From a bacterium (lineage in GTDB: Bacteria; Electryoneota; RPQS01; DYHQ01): a stretch of DNA of 64,000 nucleotides. Shown piece after piece: positions 658-61,654 of this stretch (position 1 is the first letter of the stretch; the number at the start of each line of letters is the position of its first letter). Both the position numbers and the translations under genes were made by a program. The stretch lies in NCBI GenBank assembly GCA_030622545.1, contig JAUXGA010000005.1, positions 1 through 64,000 of the forward strand. The letters run 5' to 3'. Below the pieces are notes generated by a model. The model saw only the letters and a program-made list of their open reading frames with translations, made no database searches and had not been told where the DNA came from.

Positions 658-1122
658 ATGAAGTTTCGAGTGTTATTTATTGCAATCGCGCTAGTCGCGA
701 TGACATCATTGTCGTTTGGTGCCACCCCCGCCCAGGTTTTGTACTACTATCCGGGCGATTGGGATCATAGTAGCCATGACCCGCTGACCTATGAGTCGTG
801 TTGGACGGGTACCGGGATTCCCCTCGGCTCGGAGGACGTCCTGTATGTCTTCATTGAAGGTGTAGAGTATGCGCCTTATGACTTTGTCGACTGGGGTGGA
901 TTAGCTGGTTACTTTACGATGGATTATTATGCCGGGGGCGGTGTTGCCGTAGAGGGTGATGTCACGTATTTGGAAGTTCGGTATGAGGGTTGTATCTATC
1001 GGACTGGAGAGTATATCCTTGGACCGGGCGCCATTGATATCCCTCTCTATGAAGCCGATTTCGTTTACTGCTATTGCGTAAACCCGGGCTGCGAGGTTAT
1101 CGAAGAATACAGCAGCGAATAG
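658..1122 (+). CDS. Short secreted protein, truncated paralogue of the gene at 4446-5927
   Basis: The protein has 154 residues and begins with a signal peptide (hydrophobic core IAIALVAMTSL, likely cut after SFG-A). An AGGAGG ribosome binding site lies 9 nt before the ATG. Residues from about 13 to 132 are nearly identical to the N-terminal part of the protein at 4446-5927, with five amino-acid differences. It then diverges and stops after a short Cys-containing tail (CYCVNPGC). It lacks the FnIII-like and T9SS sorting domains of its long paralogue, so it would be released to the periplasm or would be a by-product of the duplication. No function is recognised for the shared domain. Confidence 0.75.
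   Translation: MKFRVLFIAIALVAMTSLSFGATPAQVLYYYPGDWDHSSHDPLTYESCWTGTGIPLGSEDVLYVFIEGVEYAPYDFVDWGGLAGYFTMDYYAGGGVAVEGDVTYLEVRYEGCIYRTGEYILGPGAIDIPLYEADFVYCYCVNPGCEVIEEYSSE
695..1053 (+). repeat. Direct repeat, copy 1 (coding; copy 2 at 4489-4847)
   Basis: These 359 nt match 4489-4847 without gaps and with about eight substitutions, by eye about 98% identity. The similarity stops abruptly at both ends. The two copies bracket the putative selenoprotein operon at 1622-4301. Confidence 0.9.
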
Positions 1123-1621: not shown

Positions 1622-2716
1622 ATGCGAAGGTTTTTTGGGTGGTTTTTAATTATCGGATTTGTTGTGTCAGTGCTTCCTTTCGGCACAGGATGTGTCCGGA
1701 AGCCCGCTCACGGCAAATTGCAGATCCTATTTAGCGGGAATGTGCTTGGCAATCCCAAGCCCTGCGGTTGAAAGGTGAAAAAAGGCGGATTGGTCCGGAG
1801 GGCCAATTTTTATAACAGAATGCGCGACGCTGATGCAAACCAGTTTCTATTGGATGCCGGAGATTTTGTAGGTCGAGTTCATTCTATGAAAGGTGGGTGT
1901 TCCGCGACTTGCCGGCTCATGATCAATAGTTATCGAGAGATGGGGTACAATCTGCTGGGTTTGGGACGAGCCGAGTTTGCTTTGGGTAGCGACTCTTTAC
2001 AAGCGGTTCTCGATACGCTCGATATCCCGGTAATTTGTGCGAATGCTGTTAATGCAAAGACCAATAAGCCGATTGCCAAGCCTTACTATATCCAGAAGTA
2101 CGGCAATATGGTCATCGGAGTAACGGCGCTTATCAAAGATAAGAATCCCCGGAAGTATCACCGGATAGATACAACGCAGTTTACGCTTCTACCCGCCATA
2201 GAAGTTGCGCAGTCTGTGATTCCCAAATTGAAGCGCAAAGTAGATGCGGTTATCCTGCTTTGCGATTTTACACGACCGGATATTGATACGCTTCTCCAAG
2301 CAGTACCGCAAATCGATGTCATCATCACTAAAGGTTCGCTACGACCGAGGTCACAGGTCAGCCTTGCAGGGAAAACATTGCTGGTACCGACAGGCTCATC
2401 CGGGCATAATGGAACCGCTCTTACGCTGGAATTCAACCCATCCTGGGGGGACAGTATTGGGTATGATTTCGTAGATGTCCCGTTGACAGACGAATATGAA
2501 GGCGAAAATACGATTTCACCTCTCTTGGCTAAATTCAAGAAAGAATCCAGGAAGAAACCGCACAGGAAAAGTTCAGAATCGAGATTACCCACTGAAGCGA
2601 AACCACTTATTCCAGCGCCCAGTAAGGAATCTCCTGACAAAAAAGGCCAAAGCCTCAGAGAAGCGAATCAAAAGGTACAAGTAAAACGTTCGGAAAAACC
2701 GGGAACTAAGAAGTAG
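1622..2716 (+). CDS. Putative selenoprotein 1: metallophosphatase/5'-nucleotidase-like lipoprotein with PCG-Sec motif
   Basis: Reading TGA at 1769-1771 as selenocysteine gives one 364-residue protein with Sec at position 50. The ATG at 1622 has GAGG five bases upstream. The N-terminus is a hydrophobic export signal ending in a possible lipobox (GTGC, Cys24). Sec lies in the sequence GNPKPCG-Sec-KVKKGGLVRR. The paralogue just downstream has the same context and the same TGA. Later segments (LLDAGDF near 82-88, a degraded GNHE-like GRAEF, VICANAV) resemble the N-terminal domain of 5'-nucleotidase/UshA-type metallophosphatases. Several metal ligands are missing, so hydrolase activity is doubtful. 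From family memory, related proteins carry Cys at the Sec position (PCGC). The C-terminus is a Lys/Pro-rich tail. Without Sec insertion only a 49-residue peptide would be made. The internal GTG at 1775 has no ribosome binding site. Confidence 0.8.
1789..1807 (+). promoter_or_regulatory. SECIS-like hairpin of selenoprotein 1
   Basis: Bases 1789-1796 (ATTGGTCC) pair with 1800-1807 (GGGCCAAT), including one U-G pair, and leave the loop GGA. The loop begins 26 nt after the TGA. Known bacterial SECIS elements are hairpins shortly downstream of UGA with G residues in the apical loop, so size and distance fit. The hairpin overlaps codons for the conserved GGLVRRAN segment, so part of its conservation may reflect the protein. 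Confidence 0.6.
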
Positions 2717-2747
2717 CCGTTTGTGCAGGCGATTGGAAGGATTTTTC

Positions 2748-3668
2748 ATGAAGCATCGCACCACGTGGTTTCTTTTCATTCTATTCTTAGCCGGATCTCA
2801 GTTCTGGCAGATCGCGGAAGCGCGTCGTCGGATTAAGGAGCCTACTCCTATCTGGATTTGCTATTCAGGCAATCTTGTGGGGAACCTTAAACCGTGCGGT
2901 TGAAAGTCTAAAAAAGGCGGCTTGGCCCGGAGGGCCAGCTTTATCGACACGAACCGGCCGGAAGATCAGGCGAGTCTTGTTGTTGAAATTGGGAATTTCA
3001 CCGGACGACGCGGCGCTCGCGACGCAAATTATAAGAACAGCGTGTTGGCGGCATACTACAAAGCTTTGGAGTATGACGCCGTCGGTATCGGCAAAAACGA
3101 GTTGGGAATGGGGATGGATTCTCTAATCAGTTTTGTCGAACGCGAGCAATTACCGGTAATCTGCGCCAATCTTTGTGACCGCAGAACTCGCAAACCGATT
3201 TTCCAGCCCTATATGATAAAGAAAGACCACGATGTCCGCATGGGCATTGTTGGTTTGCTTTCAACAGCGCTGATTCCCGCTATGGGGCCGGATACCTCTC
3301 ACTACGAGATCCGATCCGCGTACACCTACGCGAAGCGTTGGATCCGCAAAGCCGCCAAGAAATCGGATCACCTGACTGTCATCGGCGATTTTGGGAAGGA
3401 TGAAATTGATTCTTTGCTGAATCGCTATCCCGAAATCGACTTGCTTTTAACGCTGTCCAGTCCTAAAGGTGATCGTCCGATTGAACACGGGAATTCGCTG
3501 GTCCTGGGGGCTCAACACAAAGGCTATTATGGAAATTATATCGAGTGGACTTTAGCCTCCCCGGACACCGTCCTTCCCTATCAAGCAAAGAAAGCGACAT
3601 TGGATAAGCGATTTCCGAATGATTCGCTGATTGTTTCCATTCTAAAAACCTGTGCAACTTCAAAATAA
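2748..3668 (+). CDS. Putative selenoprotein 2: paralogue with PCG-Sec motif
   Basis: Reading TGA at 2901-2903 as Sec gives a 306-residue protein with Sec at position 52. The ATG at 2748 has GGAAGG seven bases upstream and lies 31 nt after the previous gene, so the two are likely co-transcribed. It has a signal peptide (cleavage likely after AEA, residue 25). Alignment by eye with gene 1 continues across the TGA: SGNxxGNxKPCG-Sec-KxKKGGLxRRA. Downstream it keeps metallophosphatase-like blocks (VVEIGNF, YDAVGIGKNELGMGMDSL, VICANLCD, MGIVGLL). The GNHE catalytic motif is changed to GKNE. Periplasmic location and a redox role for the Cys-Gly-Sec pair are inferences. Confidence 0.8.
2922..2938 (+). 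promoter_or_regulatory. SECIS-like hairpin of selenoprotein 2
   Basis: Bases 2922-2928 (TTGGCCC) pair with 2932-2938 (GGGCCAG), leaving the loop GGA at exactly 26 nt from the TGA, as in gene 1. Compared with gene 1 one U-G pair has become C-G, a pairing-preserving change. The conserved Arg pair is encoded CGG-AGG in both genes, which builds the loop and one side of the stem. Confidence 0.6.
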
Positions 3669-3698
3669 TCTCTGTTCAGATATTGTGAGGGCTTGACC

Positions 3699-4301
3699 GT
3701 GGATTGTTTTTACAACCGAATCCCCTATACATCTGTTTTAATTTTCTGTATGCTCATATTTATAGCACCATTTGCACTGTCAAGCGATGAATTCGATCCG
3801 GATAGCATTGCTTTTCATCCGAAGGCTGTAGGAAACTACAATCCTACCCAAACTCTTTGTGGCATGAATTCCTGGTTATCTCCGGTTCTTGACCACAATG
3901 GGAATCCTCACCCAGATGGACATATTATCCAGATTATTGCCGATGGAGGCAATGGTATTCAAGACCCTCCCAATCTGGATGGCAGTCCCAGTGGCGATGA
4001 TACATTAGCGGAGGGCAACTTTAATATCCAGTATATCAATGGCGAGAAGCACATTCCGCATGGGCTATCAGCGGGCATGTTTATTGGGATGTTCTATTTC
4101 ATATCGTATAAACCGAATCAAAGTATATACTTACGGATATGGGAGGGGCGTGATCCCTCGAAAGCTGAATATTATCAAGATTCAAGGGAGTTTACAACCG
4201 AACGCGGGAATAGTGGAGGGCACATGTTTGCCCCCCATCCGAATCGCGTAGAAAGCGTCCAATGGCTTTTTAGCGAAAGCAAGAAAGTCCTCAGAAAATA
4301 A
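3699..4301 (+). CDS. Secreted protein of unknown function, third gene of the selenoprotein operon
   Basis: I do not recognise this 200-residue protein. A hydrophobic segment (SVLIFCMLIFIAPFAL) followed by SS-DEF marks a signal peptide. The mature part has a single Cys, several His residues and Gly/Asp-rich stretches (ADGGNGIQDP, GSPSGDD). It begins 30 nt after selenoprotein 2. I chose the GTG at 3699 because GAGG lies about 8 nt before it; a TTG at 3693 is too close to the same site. It has no sorting domain or lipobox. Its position suggests it acts with the two selenoproteins in the periplasm, but this is inference. Confidence 0.65.
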   Translation: MDCFYNRIPYTSVLIFCMLIFIAPFALSSDEFDPDSIAFHPKAVGNYNPTQTLCGMNSWLSPVLDHNGNPHPDGHIIQIIADGGNGIQDPPNLDGSPSGDDTLAEGNFNIQYINGEKHIPHGLSAGMFIGMFYFISYKPNQSIYLRIWEGRDPSKAEYYQDSREFTTERGNSGGHMFAPHPNRVESVQWLFSESKKVLRK

Positions 4302-4445
4302 TAGGTTTTCTCTTGCATAATGTGAAATTATTGAGTATATTATCTTATATGGGCTCTTCTATGCCCACCAAACATTCGTTTATTGCTACTCGTCGATAAT
4401 ACCGGGCTGTTCTTCAGGCCAACTTCTATTTTTGGGAGGTTTTAC

Positions 4446-5927
4446 ATGAGCGTCACACAAAGGATATTTGTAACCGTTTTTGTGCTTTTCGCGATGACAT
4501 CATTGTCGTTTGGTGCCACCCCCGCCCAGGTTTTGTACTTCTATCCGGGCGATTGGGATCATAGTAGCCATGACCCGCTGACCTATGAGTCGTGTTGGAC
4601 GGGTACCGGGATTCCCCTCGGCTCGGAGGACGTCCTGTATCCCTTCATTGAAGGTGTAGAATATGGGCCTTATGACTTTAACGACTGGGGTGGATTAGCT
4701 GGTTACTTTACGATGGATTATTATGCCGGGGGCGGTGTTGGCGTAGAGGGTGATGTCACGTATTTGGAAGTTCGGTATGAGGGTTGTATCTATCGGACTG
4801 GAGAGTATATCCTTGGACCGGGCGCCATTGATATCCCTCTCTATGAAAACGACTGGATCTACTGCAATTGTGGAATTGCTGATACATGTGATTCAGTCGA
4901 TCCACTTGAAGAGGGATTCGATGGTCCTCACGATATTCTGAGTGACGATACATTGTCGTTCATCGATACCTGCACAGTCCGTATTACCGCTCAGGGTGGC
5001 GATGCCCATGGTGTGAGTGTCGAAGTTTATGACGGGATTCCGGAATGTCATCCCGTGGATTTTAACTATATGAGTCGTGTTGTTGCCGTTTACTGGGATG
5101 GTTCCGCGGACGAAGGCACGACTCTGTTGGTGCGAATGTATTATTCTTCCGATGAATTTGATGAATCGGGATTCGATGGAGTCACCTGCTTGTTTGCAGC
5201 TCGCTTCAATGAACTCGCTTGCTCATGGGCTCCCATCATAGCACATGATAAAACGGAGAAATATGTTGAGTTCGCCACGGATCGGAGCGGCTTTTTTACC
5301 TTTGATTGTCATGGAACGACTCCTCGGCGTATCCCCTTGAATTCGGATCCTACAATTACGGCAGGCGATAACGAATTAGTCCTTTGCTGGCAGACAATAG
5401 AAGAATTCGAAACCTATCGCTTTCATGTCCTGCGCGCAGAAGCACCCGAAGGACCTTTTGCAGAAGTGGCGACGATCCCTTCACAATTACCTGATATCAA
5501 GACGACCGGGTCGTATAATTACGAATATCAGGATGGAGGTCTGGAAAACGGGCATGTCTACTACTACAAGCTGAGCCGGGAAGACCTGCACGGGAATCAG
5601 GATGGTTATCCGGGCATCTTTTCAGGAGTTCCTTCTCTCAACGGTGGTGCGGTTAAAATCGAAGCTTATGCTCTGCATCCAGCCTATCCCAATCCTTTCA
5701 ATCCCGAAACCCGGATTACTTATGACGTGCTTGAGGCGGGACGTGTTGACCTGCGTGTCTTTGATATTCTTGGACGGGAAGTTGCGCTGCTCGTAGACGA
5801 TGTGAAGCTGAAAGGTCGCCATAATATCGTCTTCAACGCGAAGGATCTTCCTTCGGGTTTGTATTTCTACCGGATTGATATTGGCGGACAGTTCACGAGC
5901 ACCCAGAAAATTCTGCTTATCAAGTAA
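4446..5927 (+). CDS. T9SS-tagged secreted protein, long paralogue of 658-1122
   Basis: The protein has 493 residues with a signal peptide (MTSLSFG-A) and starts at the ATG preceded by GGGAGG. Residues about 15-134 match the short paralogue almost exactly. The central region has an unassigned domain with several Cys residues. It is followed by an FnIII-like stretch (LCWQTIEEFETYRFHVLRAE) and a C-terminal type A sorting domain (YPNPFNPETRITYDV, SGLYFYRI, QKILLIK). It is therefore expected to be exported through the type IX system to the cell surface or medium. An upstream in-frame start at 4383 is possible but has no ribosome binding site. Confidence 0.85.
   Translation: MSVTQRIFVTVFVLFAMTSLSFGATPAQVLYFYPGDWDHSSHDPLTYESCWTGTGIPLGSEDVLYPFIEGVEYGPYDFNDWGGLAGYFTMDYYAGGGVGVEGDVTYLEVRYEGCIYRTGEYILGPGAIDIPLYENDWIYCNCGIADTCDSVDPLEEGFDGPHDILSDDTLSFIDTCTVRITAQGGDAHGVSVEVYDGIPECHPVDFNYMSRVVAVYWDGSADEGTTLLVRMYYSSDEFDESGFDGVTCLFAARFNELACSWAPIIAHDKTEKYVEFATDRSGFFTFDCHGTTPRRIPLNSDPTITAGDNELVLCWQTIEEFETYRFHVLRAEAPEGPFAEVATIPSQLPDIKTTGSYNYEYQDGGLENGHVYYYKLSREDLHGNQDGYPGIFSGVPSLNGGAVKIEAYALHPAYPNPFNPETRITYDVLEAGRVDLRVFDILGREVALLVDDVKLKGRHNIVFNAKDLPSGLYFYRIDIGGQFTSTQKILLIK
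4489..4847 (+). repeat. Direct repeat, copy 2 (coding; copy 1 at 695-1053)
   Basis: Gap-free match to 695-1053 with an offset of 3794 nt. Five of the six codon differences change the amino acid (Tyr/Phe, Val/Pro, Ala/Gly, Val/Asn, Ala/Gly) and one Glu codon is silent. Confidence 0.9.
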
Positions 5928-54880: not shown

Positions 54881-55975
54881 CTATGGCCCGGGTTTGCTGG
54901 CGGGATATGCCCGGCTATCATCGTGGCAAGCATCACAGGTTGGTTTACGAGCGAAATTGCGATCCATGTGACAGTCGCCGCAGTCCATTTCGAGATGAAT
55001 CTCGTCAAGCCCAACGCCCGTGATCTTGGCGTGATTGAAATTGGCAGTGCTCCAATCACTGTGGCAGGTGTTACAATTCCGAGAGAGACCTTTGAATTTG
55101 CCCTTGGTCTTATGGCATTTAGCGCAACTCAAAGGTTTATGGTAACAATTCAGCGGCCATGTGGCGTGAGTGAAGGCCGCGATTTCTTCCGTTCGATGGC
55201 ACCATTCGCAACTTCGCTTTCCATGGCATTGGTTGCACATATCATGAAAGGCGTCAGCATCCCGATGGAATTTAAAGCGGGGTTCTCCCTTATCATGGCA
55301 GTTGCGACAGCTTTCTCCTTGGTGGCATTTCGTACAGGCAAGGCCGTACAGTTCGACATGGTTCTGATGAAAGAAGGTAACTTTCGTTCCTTTATCGAAT
55401 TCCTCTGAAGGCCAGACCATTTTCATTGGTTCTTCGACGCCGGGATAATGGTGCTCAACAGCGACTTCTTCTCCTTTTTTTGCATGGCATACGACGCATT
55501 TTTTATCATGGCTCCACTCCATGTGGCAAGCCATGCAATTCTGATGATAGGCTCCCTTAAGAGTAGGTTGAATCGGACTTTCAACAGAAGGCTCAATCGT
55601 GTGGCATTCCTGACAAACAGGGTATCCATGGCCGGGCGGCGTATGGTGATGACAGGTACCGCAGTCTTTATCTGTTTCTCCCATATGCATGTGCATTTTG
55701 TGAGAGAAAGAAACGGGTACGTAGAGGTTTTCCAACAGGTCAATGATAATCGTATCCGGGGCTACTTTTTCATAGCCGATTCTGGGGCGCGGGCAAGCTT
55801 GAAGGCAAGGATCCGTTATTGTCGGTGTTTCGCAGGTATGGCAATCGTTGCAAGTGATACCAGAAAATGGCCCGGATGTAATGGTCTTGTTTTCTGGAGC
55901 GCTATGGGCTGTTGCGCCGACAAAGAGAATGATCGCCGATAGTAAGACGGTCACAAGAAGTATCTTTTTTGACAT
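54881..55975 (-). CDS. Periplasmic multiheme cytochrome c with 13 CxxCH motifs
   Basis: From the ATG at 55975 (CGGAG site) the product has 364 residues with a signal peptide (VTVLLSAIILFVGATAHSA). I count 13 CxxCH heme-binding motifs (CNDCH, CGTCH, CQECH, CMACH, CVVCH, CTKCH, CRNCH, CNQCH, CEWCH, CAKCH, CNTCH, CGDCH, CDACH). It is the last gene of a complex with Fe-S, NrfD-like and small membrane subunits, as in the Hmc/Tmc complexes of sulfate reducers. It likely exchanges electrons with the quinone pool through these subunits. An extra Cys-rich stretch near residue 50 has no heme motif. Confidence 0.92.
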   Translation of the reverse strand: MSKKILLVTVLLSAIILFVGATAHSAPENKTITSGPFSGITCNDCHTCETPTITDPCLQACPRPRIGYEKVAPDTIIIDLLENLYVPVSFSHKMHMHMGETDKDCGTCHHHTPPGHGYPVCQECHTIEPSVESPIQPTLKGAYHQNCMACHMEWSHDKKCVVCHAKKGEEVAVEHHYPGVEEPMKMVWPSEEFDKGTKVTFFHQNHVELYGLACTKCHQGESCRNCHDKGEPRFKFHRDADAFHDMCNQCHGKRSCEWCHRTEEIAAFTHATWPLNCYHKPLSCAKCHKTKGKFKGLSRNCNTCHSDWSTANFNHAKITGVGLDEIHLEMDCGDCHMDRNFARKPTCDACHDDSRAYPASKPGP

Positions 55976-56033
55976 TAATATATCTCCGATTACAAAAAGA
56001 AAGATTGTCGGAAACTGCACGCAGGAAAAGATT

Positions 56034-56165
56034 TTATTTTCGAGTCGATTCTTTTTTCTTGTTTAAAATCCCGAAGAAAACGACAAAGACAATCAGGAAA
56101 AAAACCGCAATGAGATATTCCTGACCTTTGGTAAAGAGCATGAAATCATGCAGCGTGTGAATCAT
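56034..56165 (-). CDS. 43-residue membrane peptide, HmcD-like
   Basis: Between the NrfD-like gene and the cytochrome gene the minus strand has an ATG behind TTAGGTGG and 43 codons, ending TAA at 56034. The product is MIHTLHDFMLFTKGQE, then one transmembrane helix (YLIAVFFLIVFVVFFGIL), then a basic end. Hmc-type complexes carry a small membrane subunit (HmcD) of this size at the same place. It was found by reading the gap, as it is shorter than usual ORF cut-offs. Confidence 0.8.
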   Translation of the reverse strand: MIHTLHDFMLFTKGQEYLIAVFFLIVFVVFFGILNKKKESTRK

Positions 56166-56184
56166 TTTCACCACCTAATTTCGC

Positions 56185-57408
56185 TTAGATTTCCGGTTCA
56201 TAGTCCGGGTGTTCCCATAAGATGGGCATCCGGTTCACGATCCAACGGAAGGTTAAAACACCCACGGTAATAATCGTGATGGTCACGGCGAATTCGGTCC
56301 ATTTAGGGACATAACGATCGGGAAGGTTCCAGTTGAATGCGATCATGGAAACATTAACGCGGTTCAGGATAAGTCCGATAACAGTCCAGATGGCTGCAAA
56401 CCGAACCCAACCAGCGCGTTCCTGACGAACCGCCCAGACGAGAAGGAAGCAGGGGGCGAGAACAAATCCGAGAACTTCCAACAGGAACCATTGTCCCATC
56501 GGTGTACCCAACAGATGCCAATGGTCGCCATGAGCCACTCCGATAACTTTCAGGCAGAAATAGCCCATTAAAGTCATCGCAGCCGCTTTTCCCAGACCAA
56601 TCGTAAGTTTATCGAATTTTTTGTGGTCAAGGCTGATTTGATGGGAAAAGACACGGTGTGTGAGAGAGCTCTCGAAAATGACCATCGTCATCCCCCCAAT
56701 AATCGCGGATACAAGAAAGAACACCGGGAGAAAAGGCGTGTACCAAAGAGGATGAAGTTTTTTCGCAGCGAGCAAGTATAAGCCTCCAAGGGCAGATTGG
56801 TGGAGTGTTGAAAGGATGACTCCAAAAATCGTGGCGCCAATCGTCAGTCCTACCACGAATTTACGAAATTTTTTCCAGCCGAGCCATTCAAAAAGCGCCG
56901 GACAGAATTCGACAAACTGACAGGAAAGATACAGCGCGACATGCCATCCCACCAGAAACATCACGGATGTTGTCCCATACGAAACGAACATGGGATAAGG
57001 TAGCCGCCACGGACGCCCGAGGTCAAAGCACAAACCGATGACAACAAAGAAATAACCTAAAAAGCCCGTCAGTACCGCCGGACGAACAATCGGATGGTAT
57101 TCCTTCATGCCAAAGAGATACACGGCGGAGCCCAGCGTGAATCCTCCGGCGGCCAGCGCGACTCCGCACAGGACATCCACGCCAATCCACATTCCCCACG
57201 GGTTGTTATCCGTCAGGTTCGTCGTGGCTGCCAATCCCTGAGTAAACCGGACGAAAGCTATCGGGATTCCAACGCAAAGAATAAGCGTGGCAATGATATT
57301 GAAGGGAGTGATAAGTTTTTTGAAATACTCTTTGAAGGACATCCCCAGAAACAGCTTATCCTGCAGCCACTCTATAAAAGTTATGTTTTCACCGGTAATC
57401 GTCGTCAT
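56185..57408 (-). CDS. NrfD-type quinone-interacting membrane subunit (HmcC-like)
   Basis: The 407-residue protein has ten predicted transmembrane helices and NrfD/HmcC-like segments (LTDNNPWGMWIGVDVLCGVALAAGGFTLG, ADKLHP-like region KKLHPLWYTPFLPVFFLVSAI, PMGQWFLLEVLGFVLAP). It likely oxidises or reduces menaquinone at the membrane. Its start overlaps the Fe-S subunit gene by 4 nt. Confidence 0.9.
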   Translation of the reverse strand: MTTITGENITFIEWLQDKLFLGMSFKEYFKKLITPFNIIATLILCVGIPIAFVRFTQGLAATTNLTDNNPWGMWIGVDVLCGVALAAGGFTLGSAVYLFGMKEYHPIVRPAVLTGFLGYFFVVIGLCFDLGRPWRLPYPMFVSYGTTSVMFLVGWHVALYLSCQFVEFCPALFEWLGWKKFRKFVVGLTIGATIFGVILSTLHQSALGGLYLLAAKKLHPLWYTPFLPVFFLVSAIIGGMTMVIFESSLTHRVFSHQISLDHKKFDKLTIGLGKAAAMTLMGYFCLKVIGVAHGDHWHLLGTPMGQWFLLEVLGFVLAPCFLLVWAVRQERAGWVRFAAIWTVIGLILNRVNVSMIAFNWNLPDRYVPKWTEFAVTITIITVGVLTFRWIVNRMPILWEHPDYEPEI

Positions 57409-58328
57409 GATTTGGCCTCCTCCTCATGTGACGAGTCCCCTTCTTCCTTCGCAATTTCATTTCGACGTCTGGAAAACAGATAGACGCCGGTGAAGAAGAC
57501 CGGCCAAAGCGTAAGGACGAGTGGGACGGAGGACAGGAAACCGCGTGTAAATTCAGGATAAGGGGTTATTCCGAGGTCCATATTGAAACCGAGCTGCTCG
57601 AATGGAACTCCGGTAATATACATCCAACTGGTTCCGCCGACTTCATGTTCGCCGTAGATGTGGTCGATATATTTATCGGGATTTCGGATGATTCTTTCGC
57701 GAGCCAATCGAATCAGGTCGCTTCGTTTGCCGAACGTGAGTGCCTGCACGGGACAGACTTCGACGCAGCCGGGCAGTTTGCCTTCTTCTTTTACGCGGTC
57801 ATGACACATCGTGCATTTCATCACGCGAGGTTTGAGTGCTTTGTCATATTCATAAGCCGGGATATAGAACGGACAGGCCATCAAACAGTAACGGCAACCA
57901 ATGCAGACGCTGGCGTTGTAGGTAACCGCTCCTTCGGGCGTCTTGGAAAAAGCCGAGACAAGACAAGCCGAAGCACATGCCGGTTCATTGCAGTGCATGC
58001 ATTGCTTCTTCACATAAACGGGCGGTTTGTCCGGATCCGGGTTGGGAAAGCGGTTGACGACAGTATAGCTTTGCGCATCGGTTCGCCGGATTTCGTCAAA
58101 AACGGACTTGTCTTCCGGGGACGGCTCCGGCGGGGGTAAATCGTTGACTCTGGCACAAGCTTCTTCACATTTACGACAACCAATGCAAAGGGTCAAGTCG
58201 GTAAGTACACCGTATCGATCCGGCCAGCCCGTAAAGTGCTCCTGCGCTTGCGCCACAGAGCTGCCGACAAGACCTGCTGCTCCAGCAGCCCCGGTCATCC
58301 CCAAAAATTGTCTGCGAGTTATACTCAT
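57405..58328 (-). CDS. Tat-exported 4Fe-4S ferredoxin subunit (HmcB-like)
   Basis: The 307-residue protein starts with a twin-arginine signal (SITRRQFLGMTGAAGAAG), so it is exported folded. It has four cysteine clusters for four [4Fe-4S] centres (CIGCRKCEEAC, CMHCNEPACASAC, CIGCRYCLMAC, CTMCHDR ... CVEVC). A C-terminal transmembrane helix (SVPLVLTLWPVFFTGVYLF) anchors it. It would pass electrons between the NrfD-type subunit and the cytochrome. The start at 58328 has AGGGAAGG upstream. The 317 nt before it (58329-58645) contain no gene and presumably the promoter. Confidence 0.93.
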   Translation of the reverse strand: MSITRRQFLGMTGAAGAAGLVGSSVAQAQEHFTGWPDRYGVLTDLTLCIGCRKCEEACARVNDLPPPEPSPEDKSVFDEIRRTDAQSYTVVNRFPNPDPDKPPVYVKKQCMHCNEPACASACLVSAFSKTPEGAVTYNASVCIGCRYCLMACPFYIPAYEYDKALKPRVMKCTMCHDRVKEEGKLPGCVEVCPVQALTFGKRSDLIRLARERIIRNPDKYIDHIYGEHEVGGTSWMYITGVPFEQLGFNMDLGITPYPEFTRGFLSSVPLVLTLWPVFFTGVYLFSRRRNEIAKEEGDSSHEEEAKS

Positions 58329-58645
58329 AGACACCCTTCCCTGAAAGGTTTGTGAAATATTGTACAATTATAGTTAAAAAATACAGGGCTTCATCCGCAG
58401 TGTCAATTGTTGCAGGACAAATCCCCATTACCTAATCCAAATATAGAAAAAAGAAACAATATTGTCAAGGTGAGACTCTGTTTTTTCAGAGGGTAAGAGC
58501 TGGAAAGAATGCAGAATCACGGATGAAGCGATGAGCTTAATCACCGAATCAGGTGTCGAGAATCCCTTTCATGATGAGATGGAGTGATCCAATAGGAGAT
58601 GGTGAAAAATCGACCTCTTCAAGTGGTTTTCATAACAAAATACGT

Positions 58646-60318: not shown

Positions 60319-60873
60319 ATGAGAAGAGTTTCCCTTTTTAGAGAAATCGTTTTTGTTTCGCTGCTAAGCATTCTCGTGGGATTCGGCGGCAAGGCTGTGC
60401 ATCAGAGCAATATTCCGCTTTGGGGACGACCGATTCCCGTGAAGTTAATCAATTTGCCGGATGCAAACGCCGGACCCAAGGCGACACATCCGGATAGTAT
60501 GTTCACGCCTGCAGACGCGCCGTATCATATATCGCTGGCGAGAGCCGCCGGGCTGTATCTTCAACGAGAGAAATTAGGTGTTTACTTTGTGGATGCTCGA
60601 TCTCACGAGCTTTATGCGGAAGGGCATATCCCCGGCGCTTTGAGTCTGCCGTGTGAACATTTCGACGAACATTTCGATGTGTTGGTTCAGCTCCTCGATA
60701 AGGAAAAACTGATTGTAATTTACTGCGATAATCATGAGTGCCAGCTATCGCTCGATTTAGCTGAAGTTCTGCTGGCAATGGAATTCCGGCGAATTGCCGT
60801 TTTTGAAGAGGGCTGGGATCAATGGGTGGAATCCGGTTATCCTACAGCAACCGGAATAGAGGAGCAGGATTAG
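60319..60873 (+). CDS. Membrane-anchored rhodanese-like protein
   Basis: The 184-residue protein has an N-terminal membrane segment (EIVFVSLLSILVGFGG) and a rhodanese domain (YFVDARSHELYAEGHIPGALSLPCEHF) with the active-site Cys in IVIYCDNHEC. The usual CxxGxR loop is replaced by CDNHECQ, so the donor specificity may differ. With the MauE/DoxX-like gene downstream it forms a pair seen in many bacteria. Confidence 0.85.
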   Translation: MRRVSLFREIVFVSLLSILVGFGGKAVHQSNIPLWGRPIPVKLINLPDANAGPKATHPDSMFTPADAPYHISLARAAGLYLQREKLGVYFVDARSHELYAEGHIPGALSLPCEHFDEHFDVLVQLLDKEKLIVIYCDNHECQLSLDLAEVLLAMEFRRIAVFEEGWDQWVESGYPTATGIEEQD

Positions 60874-60907
60874 CGCTTATGCAAGAAAGGTCGGCGTGAG
60901 CTCTATT

Positions 60908-60935
60908 CCGGGCACGCGGGATGCATGCCGCGGCG
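60908..60935 (-). repeat. GGCATGC/GCGTGCC interspersed repeat, copy f
   Basis: Minus-strand copy with one base missing in the central loop (GGCACGCGGGATGCATGCC). A half-match to the MITE-like end (GAGCCGGGCTTGAG) follows at about 60953. Confidence 0.75.
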
Positions 60936-61073
60936 GATGGATGCCTCGTCGAGCCGGGCTTGAGCTTGCACCACTCGGACGGAATTCTGGACTGACTTCC
61001 CTAACACTTGGCTGAAATGCCGTAACGAACGAGTCGAATCCACACGCCATAGATTCTCGCGAAATCTTTTGGG

Positions 61074-61104
61074 AAAAAGCCCCCGATGAAAGGGGGCTTT
61101 TTAA
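61074..61104 (+). terminator. Rho-independent terminator
   Basis: The stem AAAAAGCCCCC / GGGGGCTTTTT with a 7-nt loop. It lies between the rhodanese gene and the MauE-like gene, suggesting separate transcription or partial read-through. Confidence 0.85.
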
Positions 61105-61171
61105 GCGCAGAAACTCAATATTGGTGCGGATTTTCGCTTGACTTTGTGAAAAATTATCAATAAGTTTTAGT

Positions 61172-61654
61172 ATGCCAAATTTCACATCTTCGCGACTGTT
61201 TCGCCTCCTGGCAATCGTGTGTCGTTTATGGCTGGCGGCGATACTTTTGTATGCTGCTGTACCGAAACTCCAGGATCCGGCGGCTTTTGCCAAAGCGATA
61301 ACGAATTACCATATGGTGCTGCCGATTGTCGGTATGGACTACGTTTATCTGATGGCATTGTTCCTGCCTGCGATGGAAGCAGTAATTGGTGTCCTGCTTA
61401 TCTTGGGATTCTGGAGGCGGGGCGCAAGTCTGCTTATAGCAGCGATTATGCTCGTGTTTATCGCCGCTCTCGCGTCAGCGCTGGCGCGTCATCTGAATAT
61501 CGACTGCGGTTGTTTCGGTCTCACGGAACGCGGAGCGGAAATCGCTCATAAGATTGGGCTCAATCGCCTCCTTGAAGATGTCGCCTATGTGCTAATGGCG
61601 GGCGTCGTGTTTTGGGAAGCGACGGTCTCGAGAAAACGACGAGTTCAAGAGTAA
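61172..61654 (+). CDS. MauE/DoxX-like membrane protein
   Basis: The 160-residue protein has four transmembrane helices and the family pattern LYAAVPKLQDPAAFAKAITNY at the start and IDCGCFG near residue 112. MauE/DoxX-like proteins pair with thioredoxin or rhodanese-like proteins and are thought to help disulfide or sulfur redox chemistry. No clear ribosome binding site precedes the ATG. Confidence 0.85.
   Translation: MPNFTSSRLFRLLAIVCRLWLAAILLYAAVPKLQDPAAFAKAITNYHMVLPIVGMDYVYLMALFLPAMEAVIGVLLILGFWRRGASLLIAAIMLVFIAALASALARHLNIDCGCFGLTERGAEIAHKIGLNRLLEDVAYVLMAGVVFWEATVSRKRRVQE

What the first reader, a model, noticed from the sequence alone, without database searches (positions are those of the whole stretch)
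1622..3668. Two tandem genes read through an in-frame TGA: a new selenoprotein family with a PCG-Sec motif
Both genes have an intact signal peptide and ribosome binding site upstream and a long continuing frame downstream of one TGA. Protein similarity between the paralogues runs across the TGA (SGNxxGNxKPCG-TGA-KxKKGGLxRRA). Two independent sequencing errors at the same codon are very unlikely. TGA ends many other genes here, so a genome-wide code change does not explain it. The fold resembles 5'-nucleotidase-type metallophosphatases with lost metal ligands, so a Cys-Gly-Sec redox site would be a new use of that fold. I know of no described selenoprotein with this motif, but I cannot search.
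Basis: partly seen in the sequence, partly recalled or inferred. Interest (0 to 1): 0.93.

Follow-up and report, generated by a model that had tools for sequence, protein, structure and literature searches.

The report
Tandem haem-less UshA-like selenoproteins
Two neighbouring bacterial genes read a UGA stop codon as selenocysteine, using all the machinery the genome needs for it, but they belong to an already catalogued selenoprotein group; what is new is a short, duplicated, haem-free version of it.

Summary
Two adjacent genes (1622-2716 and 2748-3668) each carry one in-frame TGA at the same aligned codon (1769-1771, 2901-2903), in the motif PCG-TGA-KxKKGGLxRRA. The selenocysteine reading is very strongly supported. 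The genome has SelA, SelB, SelD (itself read through a TGA), tRNA-Sec (UCA) and a TGA-containing formate dehydrogenase. About 50 homologous genes in three phyla have only TGA or a Cys codon at this site. A SECIS-like hairpin lies 25-28 nt after the TGA; its top six pairs form in 50 of 50 TGA genes, with compensatory changes, and decay in most Cys copies.

The 'new family' claim is not supported. UshA-like 'CxU' selenoproteins were reported in 2008 and NCBIfam has a model, NF041198 'UshA_like_PCGU'. What is new is the variant: the NF041198-type relatives carry a C-terminal four-haem c554-like domain, whereas this pair lacks it, scores well below the model cut-off (147 and 137 against 275 bits), and is duplicated in tandem in one order, next to type IX-secretion-type proteins. 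The metallophosphatase metal ligands are lost throughout. Most likely function (inferred): a secreted Cys-Sec redox protein. Substrate unknown.

The parts
1622..2716 (+). Gene A: UshA-like selenoprotein, 364 aa with Sec at residue 50; probable lipoprotein signal (FGTGC); extra C-x3-C (GGCSATC, residues 93 and 97); K/P-rich C-terminal tail
1769..1771 (+). In-frame TGA read as selenocysteine (PCG-U), gene A
1787..1809 (+). SECIS-like hairpin of gene A, three-base loop GGA at 1797-1799, loop starts 25 nt after the TGA
2748..3668 (+). Gene B: paralogue, 306 aa with Sec at residue 52, N-terminal signal sequence, no C-x3-C
2901..2903 (+). In-frame TGA read as selenocysteine (PCG-U), gene B
2919..2941 (+). 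SECIS-like hairpin of gene B, three-base loop GGA at 2929-2931
3693..4301 (+). Conserved downstream neighbour: small secreted protein without Pfam/NCBIfam match, 43-50% identical beside the pair in the relatives whose locus reaches that far
4383..5927 (+). Downstream secreted protein with T9SS-type sorting domain (Por_Secre_tail)

Best explanation
Two tandem genes encode exported selenoproteins. UGA is decoded as Sec by SelB and tRNA-Sec with the help of a hairpin just downstream of each UGA. The proteins belong to the wider UshA-like CxU selenoprotein group, built on a metallophosphatase domain that has lost its metal ligands and has instead an invariant P-C-G-Sec motif in the loop that followed the old DxH metal motif. 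In this order the pair is a short form without the haem domain, duplicated before the order diversified: A looks like a lipoprotein with an extra C-x3-C, B looks soluble. The Cys-Gly-Sec pair most likely forms a redox-active selenylsulfide outside the cytoplasm that exchanges electrons with a protein thiol, persulfide or peroxide substrate; haem-bearing relatives would pass the electrons to a c554-type domain. Shown: reading frame, Sec machinery, Sec/Cys interchange, hairpin conservation, loss of metal ligands, absence of the haem domain, tandem paralogy. Inferred: export, selenylsulfide chemistry, substrate class.
For: Sec machinery: tRNA-Sec 61 bits with anticodon TCA, SelB 376 bits, SelD 365 bits with its own TGA, SelA 527 bits, TGA-containing FdhA-like gene. 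Homologues: PCG followed only by TGA, TGC or TGT in the order, in Candidatus Eisenbacteria and in Chloroflexi. P-C-G-[U/C], K-G-G, R and A are the invariant core of 41 aligned members. Hairpin: six inner pairs standard in 50/50 TGA genes with changes on both sides (G-C/C-G/A-U; C-G/U-A), 43-79% in 14 Cys genes; 8.3 of 9 pairs against 6.4 in synonymous shuffles, Cys genes 4.6 against 4.5. The Asn and His of GNHE and the second His of GHxH are absent from all 46 members while two true nucleotidases of the same genome keep them. Fold: AlphaFold model pLDDT 83, best PDB matches are 5'-nucleotidases, with SoxB also matched. Sec/Cys interchange needs at least 5 changes on the tree; the A and B clades are supported at 100/96 and 100/98. 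Redox context: haem fusion and a DUF1573-rhodanese-MauE/DoxX-UshA-like-4Fe4S gene order in five MAG loci, two of them truncated.
Against: No protein-level or selenium-labelling evidence. The hairpin overlaps a conserved protein motif (GGLARRA), so part of its conservation is coding; for most single genes the excess of pairs over synonymous shuffles is weak, and the strength comes from the set. Thiol or persulfide chemistry is inferred from motif and neighbours; no substrate is known. In the window clade the genes sit beside surface-protein genes, not beside rhodanese or MauE.
Confidence: 0.85

Rival explanations
1. The TGA codons are true stops or sequencing/assembly errors, and the genes are decayed or truncated.
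For: A conventional gene caller would end both genes at the TGA; one GTG frame begins just after it.
Against: The same codon is TGA in about 20 genes of the same order and in Eisenbacteria and Chloroflexi, alternating only with Cys codons; downstream frame conserved; hairpin; full Sec machinery.
Confidence: 0.01
2. TGA is read as another amino acid (a code change such as TGA=Trp) or by simple read-through.
For: None beyond the open frame.
Against: TGA ends 11 of 45 long frames in the window; homologues have Cys, never Trp, at the site; SelB and tRNA-Sec are present.
Confidence: 0.01
3. The proteins are active metallophosphatases (5'-nucleotidase, cyclic phosphodiesterase or SoxB-like thiosulfohydrolase) in which Sec adds a metal ligand or nucleophile.
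For: Fold and sequence similarity to UshA, CpdB and SoxB; some Eisenbacteria members keep one or two of the His residues.
Against: The Asn-His dyad of GNHE and the second His of GHxH are absent from all 46 members; of the eight ligand positions gene A keeps only the Asp of the GD motif and gene B none. In solved UshA- and SoxB-type enzymes these residues hold the two metals (own knowledge).
Confidence: 0.05
4. Sec and Cys bind a metal or metalloid for trafficking or detoxification and do not carry out redox turnover; the His-rich tails of some A homologues and the C-x3-C fit this.
For: Tails such as HVGHNHG and HEGHDHG in some relatives; C-x3-C of gene A.
Against: His tails are not conserved (absent from the window genes); haem fusion and MauE/rhodanese neighbours in relatives favour electron transfer.
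Confidence: 0.1

Closest known systems
UshA-like CxU selenoprotein family (NCBIfam NF041198 UshA_like_PCGU; 'COG0737, UshA-like' of the 2008 GOS selenoproteome)
   Same: P-C-G-Sec/Cys motif, UshA-like N-terminal domain, Sec and Cys forms coexist
   Different: The window pair lacks the C-terminal multi-haem region of the NF041198-type relatives, scores 147 and 137 bits against a cut-off of 275, is duplicated in tandem, and in the sampled phylum this motif form is confined to one order
UshA-like selenoprotein family 2 (NCBIfam NF049981, CxxU)
   Same: UshA-like domain, Sec protein
   Different: Different motif (CxxU as listed in PMC13188914); window proteins match at only 34 and 40 bits against a cut-off of 140
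5'-nucleotidase UshA / 2',3'-cyclic phosphodiesterase / SoxB
   Same: Fold and order of secondary structure of the N-terminal domain
   Different: Metal ligands lost; C-terminal nucleotidase domain absent; Cys-Sec motif added
Cytochrome c554 family proteins
   Same: Fused to the UshA-like domain in the haem-bearing relatives
   Different: Not present in the window genes; the genome has one separate c554-like protein elsewhere (contig C18, L020)

Membership tests
UshA-like CxU selenoproteins (broad group, COG0737-related) | C-x-Sec motif with Cys homologues at the Sec position | tested here: met
UshA-like CxU selenoproteins (broad group, COG0737-related) | UshA-like domain | tested here: met
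NF041198 UshA_like_PCGU (equivalog) | Score over the curated cut-off of 275 bits | tested here: not met
   147 and 137 bits; haem-bearing L086 and L087 score 280 and 298
NF041198 UshA_like_PCGU (equivalog) | C-terminal multi-haem CxxCH part of the profile (about positions 400-516, where the separate c554-like gene matches) | tested here: not met
UshA-like selenoprotein family 2 (NF049981) | Score over the cut-off of 140 bits | tested here: not met
   34 and 40 bits
UshA/5'-nucleotidase metallophosphatases | Dimetal ligands DxH, GD, GNHE, H, GHxH | tested here: not met
SoxB thiosulfohydrolase | Curated cut-off (550 bits) and dimetal site | tested here: not met
   43 and 18 bits
Selenoprotein | Complete Sec synthesis and decoding genes in the same genome | tested here: met
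Selenoprotein | bSECIS-type hairpin downstream of the UGA | tested here: met
Selenoprotein | Selenium in the protein | not testable with these tools
   needs labelling or mass spectrometry

The most novel reading that the evidence does not exclude
A dead metallophosphatase domain has been turned into an exported Cys-Sec oxidoreductase; in this order it has no haem electron-transfer domain and became a two-protein selenoenzyme system (lipoprotein A with a second dithiol, soluble B) that works with a type IX-secreted surface-protein operon, for example in thiol/disulfide or persulfide handling of surface proteins.
Probability: 0.2. Interest if true: 0.65.

Novelty: new variant of a known kind. 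Interest (0 to 1): 0.4.

Why it matters
The family's curated model misses this form, so automatic annotation may cut such genes at the UGA (inference). Sec or Cys kept at this site across three phyla while every metal ligand position is eroded points to the Cys-Sec pair as the working part, which makes the function of the family testable.

Tried and rejected
A viral-contig scan found no relative. Plasmid records gave no selenoprotein relative, only weak (<30% identity) matches, those annotated being nucleotidases, a metallophosphatase and SoxB. Fold search against viral proteins gave nucleotidases and phosphoesterases at the top. The 'PCGU' literature search found nothing under that word, although the family is listed as 'CxU'. 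I considered a disulfide-partner role for the conserved downstream neighbour (3693-4301), but its relatives have no conserved cysteine. Rhodanese and MauE genes are in the window at 60.3-61.7 kb, but 57 kb from the pair, so I did not link them.

Full report
Observation. Gene A (1622-2716) and gene B (2748-3668) are as described. Each has an N-terminal signal sequence, then one in-frame TGA (1769-1771; 2901-2903), then a long continuing frame. The paralogues align across the TGA at 32% identity, yet the 75 nt around the TGA are 76% identical as DNA, which suggests constraint on RNA as well as protein. TGA is a normal stop in the window: 11 of 45 long frames end in it.

Selenocysteine. The genome (2.66 Mb, 96% complete) encodes tRNA-Sec with anticodon TCA (61 bits), SelB (376 bits), SelD (365 bits, itself with one TGA) and SelA (527 bits), and a formate-dehydrogenase-like gene with a TGA in frame. 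SelA is present in nearly the whole phylum (34 of 39 genomes over the cut-off).

Homologues. A search of 60 relatives found close TGA-containing homologues in ten other genomes of the same order, mostly as tandem pairs and with up to four tandem pieces. Reading these and 42 loci from named genomes (KSB1/Calditrichaeota-labelled MAGs, Candidatus Eisenbacteria, Chloroflexi) gives TGA or a Cys codon, and nothing else, after PCG. Several tandem sets hold a Sec copy beside a Cys copy (loci L056, L057, L062/L077, L100, L102, L106). In 39 genomes of the phylum a pattern search found the motif in 11, all in one order of 13 sampled genomes. A tree gives supported A and B clades that each contain the window copy (100/96 and 100/98), so the duplication is older than the split of these genomes, and at least five Sec/Cys changes.

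Hairpin. In all 50 distinct TGA genes a stem GGCCC-GGN-GGGCC or a close variant follows, its loop beginning 25-28 nt after the TGA. The inner six pairs are standard in 50 of 50, with changes on both sides (fifth pair: G-C, G-U, C-G, A-U; second pair: C-G, U-A). In 14 Cys genes (one of them a chance motif match in L083) the same positions pair in 43-79%. Against shuffles that keep the protein sequence but redraw synonymous codons, TGA genes have 8.3 of 9 pairs (expected 6.4) and Cys genes 4.6 (expected 4.5). The geometry agrees with the bacterial SECIS consensus (own knowledge). Single genes are only weakly significant; the set is not.

Known family. NCBIfam NF041198 'UshA_like_PCGU' matches both proteins (E 8e-43 and 7e-40), below its cut-off (147 and 137 against 275 bits). 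The family was listed as 'COG0737, UshA-like, CxU' in the 2008 GOS study (PMC2398784; the table row gives 76 and 92 as counts), and again in PMC9312934 and PMC13188914.

What differs. The haem-bearing Eisenbacteria relatives are about 450-480 aa, with four C-terminal CxxCH motifs (Cytochrome_C554), and those tested score 255-298 bits. The window clade lacks this domain, as do the Chloroflexi and some Eisenbacteria members. Gene A and its orthologues have an extra C-x3-C (GGCSxKC) that B lacks. Whether the haem was lost in this branch or gained in the other is not settled.

Fold and active site. The model of gene A (pLDDT 83) matches 5'-nucleotidases and SoxB in the PDB (E 1.9e-20 and 3e-17). 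Aligned with two true nucleotidases of the same genome, all 46 family members lack the Asn and His of GNHE and the second His of GHxH; of the eight ligand positions gene A keeps one Asp and gene B none. The invariant residues instead are P-C-G-[U/C], K-G-G, R and A. The Cys-Sec pair sits in the loop after the first strand, and the C-x3-C of gene A follows the second strand; in UshA these loops face the metal site (topology, orientation inferred).

Function. In five MAG loci of a haem-bearing clade (two on short contigs) the gene lies with DUF1573, rhodanese, MauE/DoxX and, where the contig reaches that far, 4Fe-4S membrane protein genes. With the haem fusion this suggests electron transfer to or from a Cys-Sec site, perhaps on sulfur species. 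In the window's order the neighbours are instead secreted proteins with type IX sorting domains and one conserved small secreted protein of unknown family. I infer an exported Cys-Sec oxidoreductase; the substrate is open.

Verdict. Selenocysteine: about 0.97. Exported redox function: about 0.85 given that. Novelty: a haem-less tandem variant of a known selenoprotein group.

Noticed in passing
window 690-989 and 4484-4783: A 300-nt direct repeat, 97% identical, flanks the selenoprotein pair: the N-terminal parts of two secreted proteins (658-1122 and 4383-5927). Recent duplication or gene conversion.
   Followed up: partly
window 3693-4301: Small secreted protein without Pfam or NCBIfam match (motif DGGNGIQDPPNxDGxPGGDD), conserved beside the selenoprotein pair in the relatives of the order whose locus reaches that far: an unnamed partner family.
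   Followed up: partly
window 60319-61654: Rhodanese-domain gene followed by a MauE/DoxX-type membrane gene; in other MAGs such a pair lies directly upstream of the haem-bearing PCGU gene, here it is 57 kb away.
   Followed up: partly
window 54881-58367: Multihaem cytochrome (many CxxCH), NrfD-like membrane protein and 4Fe-4S protein genes in a row on the minus strand: probably a quinone-linked electron-transfer complex.
   Followed up: no
L016:1420-2361 (genome contig C16:181956-182747, minus): A third UshA-like paralogue in the same genome with Cys in place of Sec (EGCGC) and an intact DxH motif.
   Followed up: partly
L086, L085, L088, L089, L090: Conserved gene order DUF1573 - rhodanese - MauE/DoxX - PCGU UshA-like with haems - 4Fe-4S membrane protein (L085 and L089 are short contigs; L089 ends before the last gene).
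   Followed up: partly
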